A stretch of DNA of 64,000 nucleotides from contig JAKAGV010000008.1 of NCBI GenBank assembly GCA_021815405.1, forward strand, positions 186,001 to 250,000, given 5' to 3'. The position numbers and the translations under genes are program-made. A model generated the notes under the pieces. The model made no database searches and was not told where the DNA came from. It was given only the letters and a program-made list of their open reading frames with translations. Positions 19,610-20,872 of this stretch are shown here, piece by piece; position 1 is the stretch's first letter, and each line of letters opens with the position of its first letter. The stretch comes from Bacteroidota bacterium. GTDB taxonomy: Bacteria > Bacteroidota > Ignavibacteria > Ignavibacteriales > Ignavibacteriaceae.

Positions 19610-20284
19610 CTACTGTGCCGGCGGAGTTGGCGGAGGTGTATCGTTCCCGCCTCGTCCACCTCCTTTAGAAACAGGCTCAAAGGCAATAAGCATAGCACGG
19701 TCTTTAGGAAAATTTGCCTTTACAAAATTCCTGATCTTATTTATTTCGGACTTATAAACTTTCGCTGCAGCATCGCGGATTTCAGTAGCTGTTTTTTGAT
19801 CCTTCTTAGCTTTAATCTGAGCAGAGTTTGCCGCGCGCAGCTTTTCGGGCATTGCTTTAATGTTATCAATATCCTCCTGTGTCATTCCATTATCAATCAG
19901 AAAAGTATGGCTAACCTCATCAAGTCCGTCGAGATATTCACAGCGCTCTATTATGCCTTTATACCCGCCTGTTATTGATTCATCAATCTTAAACTTCTTC
20001 TGTTCCGTCGCATCATCAGTTGCACTCTTTACAGTATAACCGACTTTTTCTATTAACGAAATTGCTTCCTGCTTAGTATTTTGTTTTTCTGACGTCGCAC
20101 TTACAGCTTTCTCAACGGATAGCGTCTGTGCCTTATCCTTCGCATCTAAATCTGTCCGAGCCGAATTAAAGGAATCGAACTTTGCTTGTTTAAAGTTTTT
20201 CGCATCTAATTTAGCACGGTTATCTTCCACTGCCTTTTTAGTAGCATCTCCTTGTTCCTGCAGTTCTTCTATTCTTACGTCCAT
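19610..20284 (-). CDS. Hypothetical Ala/Lys/Asp-rich, probably coiled-coil protein with Gly/Pro-rich C-terminus
   Basis: 224 aa, good upstream aaggag, charged helical composition, tail KGGGRGGNDTPPPTPPAQ; family not recognised. Confidence 0.65.
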   Translation of the reverse strand: MDVRIEELQEQGDATKKAVEDNRAKLDAKNFKQAKFDSFNSARTDLDAKDKAQTLSVEKAVSATSEKQNTKQEAISLIEKVGYTVKSATDDATEQKKFKIDESITGGYKGIIERCEYLDGLDEVSHTFLIDNGMTQEDIDNIKAMPEKLRAANSAQIKAKKDQKTATEIRDAAAKVYKSEINKIRNFVKANFPKDRAMLIAFEPVSKGGGRGGNDTPPPTPPAQ

Positions 20285-20434
20285 TTTTAACTCCTTTTTA
20301 TTATTGGTTAATTATTTCCTTCAAAAGAGGAATGGTTAGTTGTTAAATAGCAATAATTTTTTCTTAATCAGGTTTATAAATCCATTAAAAACCTTTATTT
20401 CAGCCCCAAAAACACCTTTTTCAAAATGAATTGA

Positions 20435-20749
20435 TAGTTTTGCTTTTAACTTCAGTCATTTTCAATCTCATTTCGATCATTTTCAGAATTCATTTAATGA
20501 TTTTAAAAGTCAATTTGGTGATTTAAAAAACCATTTCGGTCATTTTTAATTATCGATCAGTCATTTATAAATCCAATTCGATGATTTTTCATGTCCGTTT
20601 GATCATTTAAAAACCTAATTTGATGATTTACAAAGTGCAATCGGTCATTTTAAATCTCAAGTTGTTCATTTAGAACTTCCTTTCAGTCTCTTAAAAATTA
20701 ATTTTGATTCCTTAAAAAATCATTTCGCTATTTCAAAGAACAAAACAAA
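20435..20749. repeat. Tandem array of ~15 degenerate 21-bp units
   Basis: T[C/G]ATTT-type anchors start at 20435, 20456, 20477, 20498, 20519, 20540, 20561, 20582, 20603, 20624, 20645, 20666, 20687, 20708 and 20729: exactly 21 bp apart, no indels. Confidence 0.9.
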
Positions 20750-20843
20750 TCTTTTAATAATTATGGTAATTAGTCGATAAAAAGAAAATATAGTTATGCA
20801 GAAAAAAATTGTCAGGATTTTTTTCTTAAAGGATATAACTTTG

Positions 20844-20872
20844 TATCTATATACCAATCATAAACAAGTCAA
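20844..20872 (-). promoter_or_regulatory. Candidate promoter reading through the 21-bp array into the 19610..20284 ORF
   Basis: Minus strand TTGACT - 17 nt - TAGATA. Confidence 0.35.

What the first reader, a model, noticed from the sequence alone, without database searches (positions are those of the whole stretch)
19610..20872. Candidate two-part locus: promoter - long 21-bp-repeat leader - orphan coiled-coil ORF
A sigma70-like promoter on the minus strand (TTGACT-17-TAGATA, 20844..20872) would give a ~550-nt 5' leader containing the whole repeat array, followed by a well-placed aaggag RBS and a 224-aa charged coiled-coil protein with a GGGRGG/PPPTPPAQ tail and no recognised family. A structured repeat RNA and a protein encoded in cis could form an undescribed RNA-protein or DNA-architecture system. 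A palindrome (family D) ends 3 nt after the stop codon and may act as its terminator.
Basis: partly seen in the sequence, partly recalled or inferred. Interest (0 to 1): 0.8.

Follow-up and report, generated by a model that had tools for sequence, protein, structure and literature searches.

The report
21-bp DNA array paired with coiled-coil gene
The finding is one copy of an apparently undescribed two-part genetic module, found across Bacteroidota, in which a gene for a coiled-coil protein of unknown function sits just after a non-coding row of DNA repeats spaced at exactly 21 base pairs (two turns of the double helix), which suggests a row of protein-binding sites on DNA.

Summary
The window holds a 224-aa coiled-coil ORF (19610-20284, minus) preceded by a degenerate 21-bp array (about 20431-20740). 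Of 65 distinct homologous loci, 51 have a period-21 array upstream, on the gene's side and co-inherited with it, against 14 of 762 ordinary ORFs. In 1.25 Mb of this genome there are 17 period-21 arrays and essentially none of any other period from 12 to 36; 800 kb from five relatives lacking close homologues has none. Array sequence differs at almost every locus; only the 21-bp spacing is constant. The arrays are not coding (stops at 0.88-0.97 of expectation in six frames) and not structured RNA (mean folding z about -0.2). Column conservation within units peaks at 10.5 bp, as expected for recognition on one face of B-DNA. The protein models as a long-helix coiled coil with no known fold; it is a remote relative of NCBI's function-unknown 'PQLLE' family. 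Best explanation: a row of protein-binding sites on DNA, probably serving the adjacent protein. The binder is unproven, and 11 of the 17 arrays have no recognisable family gene beside them.

The parts
19610..20284 (-). Coiled-coil protein gene, 224 aa: two similar halves, each with a 56-residue helix (33-88, 136-191), and a disordered GGGRGGNDTPPPTPPAQ tail
   Evidence: ORF list; homologues; AlphaFold2 pLDDT 91, pTM 0.75
20291..20296 (-). AAGGAG ribosome-binding site
   Evidence: sequence; similar sites before most homologues
20431..20740 (-). Non-coding degenerate tandem array, strict period 21 bp (core 20456-20740; lenient limits 20343-20760)
   Evidence: not coding; no RNA fold
20844..20872 (-).
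20945..21126 (-). Conserved upstream block shared with copies in other genomic contexts in G003 and G012
20962..21022 (-). Conserved hairpin GAACTAATTGC(ATG)...GGGGCAATTAGTTC; all six copies in the genus are followed by a period-21 array
   Evidence: fold z -3.3
21028..21075 (-). Putative 15-codon leader ORF (TTG start; LYIHIKITCCNNKFD*), tentative
   Evidence: against the G000:C14 copy differences fall 2/1/10 at codon positions 1/2/3; other pairs are less clear
19541..19609 (-). REP-type palindrome directly after the stop codon
   Evidence: fold z -4.4; comparable palindromes after homologues

Best explanation
The locus is one copy of a dispersed two-part module of Bacteroidota: a non-coding DNA array of roughly 5-30 units of exactly 21 bp, followed in the same orientation by a gene for a probably cytoplasmic coiled-coil protein (PQLLE-like superfamily; the C-terminus is a Gly/Arg/Pro tail or an Ig/FnIII-like domain). 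Inferred mechanism: each unit is a protein-binding site on double-stranded DNA, contacted at two patches about one helical turn apart. Because units are exactly two turns apart, bound proteins line up on one face and form an ordered nucleoprotein array. The downstream protein, itself built of two similar halves, is the best candidate binder, directly or through a partner; it would regulate its own locus and/or organise the DNA there. Shown: the module, its generality, the strict 21-bp phase, the absence of coding and RNA structure, and the 10.5-bp conservation rhythm. Inferred: that the array acts as DNA, that a protein binds it, that the adjacent protein is that binder, and the biological purpose.
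For: Gene to array: 51 of 65 homologous loci against 14 of 762 control ORFs, including loci in other Bacteroidota families. Array to gene: among 17 arrays found blind in 1.25 Mb, 5 lie next to a profile-supported family gene, two of them (L112, L156) with clear profile support though distant from the query. Genome level: none in 800 kb of five relatives without close homologues (about 11 expected). Only period 21 exists; 92% of 736 inner units are in exact phase, and similarity does not decay with distance up to 126 bp. Conservation within units peaks at harmonic 2, period 10.5 bp (power 0.239 against 0.100, p<=0.0005; dominant in 32/65 arrays), with no codon rhythm; columns are over-dispersed in 51/65. 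Orthologous arrays L009/L010 change least at the columns conserved across units (Spearman -0.58, p 0.006). Array and gene are co-inherited in fixed orientation (r 0.7-0.8 same strand against about 0.2-0.4 opposite for the closest pairs). No stop avoidance, no RNA structure.
Against: No known DNA-binding domain or fold is recognised in the protein. Eleven of 17 arrays in the sampled genome have no recognisable family gene beside them, yet show the same or stronger 10.5-bp rhythm, so the binder may be another protein or act in trans. Almost every array has its own sequence, which would require many specificities or a sequence-indifferent binder. Harmonic 2 of a 21-bp unit is 10.5 bp by construction: it shows two conserved patches per unit and suggests, but does not prove, helical recognition. 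About eight family genes truly lack an upstream array (L011, L014, L016, L017, L036, L068, L071, L072).
Confidence: 0.5

Rival explanations
1. The array acts as RNA: a long 5' leader bound or processed into repeat-unit RNAs that inhibit or guide the downstream protein, in the manner of type III toxin-antitoxin or TIGR-Tas arrays.
For: The array sits on the gene strand between a conserved leader block (putative leader ORF plus hairpin) and the gene; units have two conserved and two variable patches, superficially like TIGR dual repeats (PMC12045711); order repeats-then-gene as in ToxIN/CptIN (PMC4627078).
Against: No RNA structure on either strand (window z +0.27); no Rfam match; no ToxN-like, Nop or nuclease domain; several arrays lie between convergent genes with no downstream partner; period fixed at 21 whereas type III repeats differ in length between loci.
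Confidence: 0.2
2. The arrays are satellite-like or selfish repeats carried along with a mobile gene, kept at 21 bp by their copying mechanism rather than by a function.
For: Copies lie in unrelated genomic contexts; REP palindromes and a Y1/RAYT-like transposase ORF follow the gene in three homologues; some arrays are nearly identical internally and others highly decayed; L009/L010 arrays differ by 17-22% per 100 bp where the 5' UTR and gene start differ by 3-8%.
Against: Decayed arrays keep exact phase and show no fall in similarity with distance; columns are non-randomly constrained; unrelated sequences in dozens of loci all have period 21 and no other period appears.
Confidence: 0.17
3. 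The array is an intrinsically curved DNA element (in-phase bends) that helps the promoter or DNA packaging without a specific binder.
For: Any strict 21-bp repeat adds bends in phase; predicted curvature slightly exceeds column-permuted arrays with Bolshoy wedges (mean z 0.67, 16/65 above 1.64; window z 3.0).
Against: Weak with Olson roll angles (mean z 0.31); no A/T composition signal at 10.5 bp; GC-rich arrays are as strict as AT-rich ones.
Confidence: 0.1
4. The array encodes heptapeptide repeats (7 codons x 3 = 21) or is a decayed coiled-coil gene.
For: Some arrays read as open heptads in one frame, e.g. L005 ELFRANF, L013 KEVFQRL, L104, L132.
Against: Across 66 arrays stop codons occur at 0.88-0.97 of the column-shuffle expectation in every frame and 4.8% of frames have p<0.05; no period-3 conservation; the window array has stops in all six frames.
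Confidence: 0.02

Closest known systems
Plasmid iterons and partition centromeres (RepA iterons; parC of ParMRC) - from general knowledge
   Same: Rows of short direct repeats at whole helical-turn spacing next to the gene of the presumed cognate protein; non-coding; repeat sequence specific to each locus.
   Different: Chromosomal, dozens per genome by extrapolation, many without an adjacent gene; no Rep, ParM or ParR gene seen nearby; the protein is a long-helix coiled coil without a recognised DNA-binding fold.
Type III toxin-antitoxin (ToxIN, CptIN, TenpIN; PMC4627078)
   Same: Tandem repeats directly upstream of one small-protein gene on the same strand.
   Different: No RNA secondary structure found, constant 21-bp unit, all-helical protein with no match to ToxN.
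TIGR-Tas (PMC12045711)
   Same: Repeat units with two conserved and two variable segments beside one protein gene.
   Different: 21-bp units instead of a 36-nt processed guide; no Nop, RuvC or HNH domain found; variable positions grade into conserved ones and are not spacer-like.
NCBIfam NF052641 PQLLE family
   Same: Related protein domain (8 of 13 members of A2 match); some true members (L047, L048) also have the array.
   Different: The window protein is far below the family cut-off; no function or array association was found described for it.

Membership tests
NCBIfam NF052641 (PQLLE family) | Score above the curated cut-off of 80 bits | tested here: not met
   28.3 bits, E 1.2e-6; paralogue L047 in the same genome passes with 131.6 bits
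PQLLE-like coiled-coil superfamily (as defined here) | Profile similarity over the about 200-aa helical domain | tested here: met
   A4 against the FnIII-tailed set A6: probability 99.2%, E 1.3e-19 over 206 columns
Type III toxin-antitoxin | Tandem repeats upstream of the protein gene | tested here: met
Type III toxin-antitoxin | Repeat RNA folds into a pseudoknot or other stable structure | tested here: inconclusive
   no stable secondary structure; pseudoknots were not modelled
Type III toxin-antitoxin | ToxN/CptN/TenpN-like endoribonuclease | tested here: not met
   no meaningful Pfam, PDB or PADLOC match; all-helical coiled-coil model
TIGR-Tas | Nop-domain protein | tested here: not met
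   no Pfam match and no Nop fold among the top PDB matches
TIGR-Tas | 36-nt processed dual-spacer RNA | not testable with these tools
   needs small-RNA sequencing; the unit length is 21, not 36
Iteron / partition-type DNA arrays | Direct repeats at whole-turn spacing | tested here: met
   21 bp, 92% of inner units in phase
Iteron / partition-type DNA arrays | Cognate protein binds the repeats | not testable with these tools
   needs EMSA, footprinting or ChIP
Iteron / partition-type DNA arrays | Replication initiator or partition ATPase gene alongside | tested here: not met
   neighbouring ORFs in the window, L082, L083 and L084 do not look like Rep or partition proteins (read by eye)

The most novel reading that the evidence does not exclude
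A large, undescribed class of Bacteroidota modules in which each coiled-coil PQLLE-like protein assembles on its own helically phased 21-bp DNA array, a bacterial satellite- or centromere-like nucleoprotein system with dozens of locus-specific arrays per chromosome.
Probability: 0.3. Interest if true: 0.92.

Novelty: categorically new. Interest (0 to 1): 0.8.

Why it matters
Chromosomal satellite-like arrays with one exact period but a different sequence at nearly every locus, tied to one protein superfamily, are not something known bacterial systems predict. If the arrays are protein-binding scaffolds, they would be a new kind of bacterial DNA organisation or self-regulated module and would give a first handle on a large protein family of unknown function. 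The 21-bp rule makes a clean test possible: change the spacing and see what breaks.

Tried and rejected
Coding heptads: rejected. Structured RNA: not supported. Sigma-70 promoter upstream of arrays: no enrichment. Dyad-symmetric units: not general (6 of 67 with p<0.01; the orphan arrays L103, L104, L120 and L149 do look palindromic). Intrinsic curvature: weak. A shared motif between arrays of one genome: only L132/L134 match clearly. Known folds: no PDB or viral match below E 0.001. Named relatives: the genome-contig scan returned 3 loci, all from Bacteroidetes MAGs; no plasmid match for the window protein or L047 and no phage match for L045. Gene remnants beside orphan arrays: none found. Literature: nothing on 'PQLLE', and none of the other paper searches turned up such arrays.

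Full report
What is in the window. The minus strand carries a 224-aa ORF (19610-20284) with AAGGAG shortly before ATG, and upstream of it a degenerate tandem array, core 20456-20740. The array's match fraction at lags 21, 42, 63 and 84 is 0.58-0.62, against at most 0.44 in block shuffles. The palindrome after the stop codon is a strong hairpin (z -4.4) of REP type; the homologues L082, L083 and L084 also have palindromes soon after the stop codon.

The protein. It has no Pfam family and is weakly related to NCBIfam NF052641 'PQLLE family', whose name gives no function (28 bits, cut-off 80). AlphaFold2 gives a confident all-helical model (pLDDT 91, pTM 0.75): two similar halves, each with a 56-residue helix, and a disordered tail. 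Foldseek finds no PDB or viral match below E 0.001. Homologues occur in 26 of 294 genomes of the class (16 of 151 genera), up to six per genome. A second set of proteins with a beta-stranded Ig/FnIII-like C-terminus (model) is homologous over the whole helical domain (probability 99.2%, E 1.3e-19). So the superfamily is one helical domain with an exchangeable C-terminus. No signal peptide is evident by eye.

Generality of the two-part locus. I scanned every homologous locus for arrays. Of 65 distinct loci, 51 have a period-21 array within 700 bp upstream (median gap 181 nt, median length 264 bp); 14 of 762 ORFs of at least 150 aa in the sampled genome do. About six of the 14 exceptions are artefacts (Ns, contig end, wrong start); eight look real. 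Loci from more distant Bacteroidota families (L208, L210, L211, L223) also have arrays; L212 and L213 do not. Arrays range from 10% to 69% GC and almost every locus has its own unit sequence. Close homologues share array sequence on the same strand (r 0.7-0.8 against about 0.2 on the opposite strand); the likeness fades at about 50% protein identity.

The reverse direction. In 1.25 Mb of this genome a scan of 19 periods from 12 to 36 found 17 arrays of period 21 and none of any other, save one of period 12 and one at 14 that is a harmonic of a period-21 array. Extrapolated, that is about 65 per genome; the sampled contigs were partly chosen because they hold family genes, so the figure is rough. 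Five of the 17 lie next to a profile-supported family gene and a sixth (L111) next to a protein of similar layout. Eleven have no recognisable family gene. One further array (L197) carries the same conserved upstream block as the window copy but no gene, so some orphan arrays probably come from modules that lost the gene. In 800 kb from five relatives lacking close homologues there is no genuine period-21 array, where about 11 would be expected; the few period-21 signals there also score at 14 or at many other periods. Caveat: G056 had one weak match to the FnIII-tailed profile.

What the arrays are not. They are not coding: stop codons occur at 0.88-0.97 of a column-shuffled expectation in all six frames, 4.8% of frames fall below p 0.05, and conservation has no period of 3. 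They are not structured RNA: mean folding z is -0.20 sense and -0.11 antisense, and the window array has z +0.27. Dyad symmetry is not general. Predicted curvature is only slightly raised.

What they look like. Mean excess identity is 0.335 at lag 21, about 0.03 at 20 and 22, and still 0.30 at lag 126; 92% of 736 inner units are in exact phase. Columns vary unequally in 51 of 65 arrays. The conservation profile within the unit has its main power at harmonic 2, period 10.5 bp (0.239 against 0.100 expected, p<=0.0005; the strongest harmonic in 32 of 65 arrays), also in orphan arrays (0.299). In the orthologous pair L009/L010, which correspond unit by unit, the columns conserved across units change least (Spearman -0.58, p 0.006) although the array as a whole diverges faster than its flanks. 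This is what a row of protein-binding sites on one face of B-DNA would look like. Harmonic 2 of a 21-bp unit is 10.5 bp by construction, so strictly the result is two conserved patches per unit.

Surroundings. The window copy and its relatives in G003 and G012 lie in different genomic contexts but share about 180 bp upstream of the array. That block holds a hairpin and, tentatively, a 15-codon leader ORF: against the C14 copy its differences fall 2, 1 and 10 at codon positions 1, 2 and 3, but other pairs are less clear. All six copies of the hairpin in the genus are followed by a period-21 array. A Y1/RAYT-like transposase ORF follows the gene in L082, L083 and L084 (identified by eye). The unit therefore seems to move as a whole.

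Verdict. The module is real, general and, as far as the searches reach, undescribed. I favour a DNA-level array of protein-binding sites, with the adjacent coiled-coil protein as the most likely but unproven binder. The array's function as DNA, the identity of the binder and the biological purpose are inferences. The literature searches were limited to open-access papers and do not exclude a description elsewhere.

Noticed in passing
window 37359-37465: A second, shorter and weaker period-21 array without a family gene, beside a transposase-like ORF (37537-38442, minus) that may have interrupted it.
   Followed up: partly
L082:9594-10040, L083:16945-17244, L084:8603-9049: Y1/RAYT-like transposase ORF with REP-type palindromes directly after the family gene in three homologous loci.
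   Followed up: partly
L132:17469-17708 and L134:13555-13804 (G000:C25): Two orphan arrays about 36 kb apart share their unit sequence in opposite orientation (z 9.3), the only clear match between arrays within this genome.
   Followed up: no
L009 and L010, upstream of the array: A possible 17-codon leader ORF (MWGSDRKIPLFCFERVK / WGSDREVPLFCFERVK) conserved upstream of the array, like the one in the window subfamily; read by eye only.
   Followed up: no
L103, L104, L120, L149: Orphan arrays with palindromic units (z 3.3-4.7), unlike most gene-linked arrays; possibly a distinct class.
   Followed up: no
L009 (G008:C113), reverse strand 2856-3641: The ORF beyond this family member looks like a Cas9 N-terminus; no link to the array is implied.
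   Followed up: no
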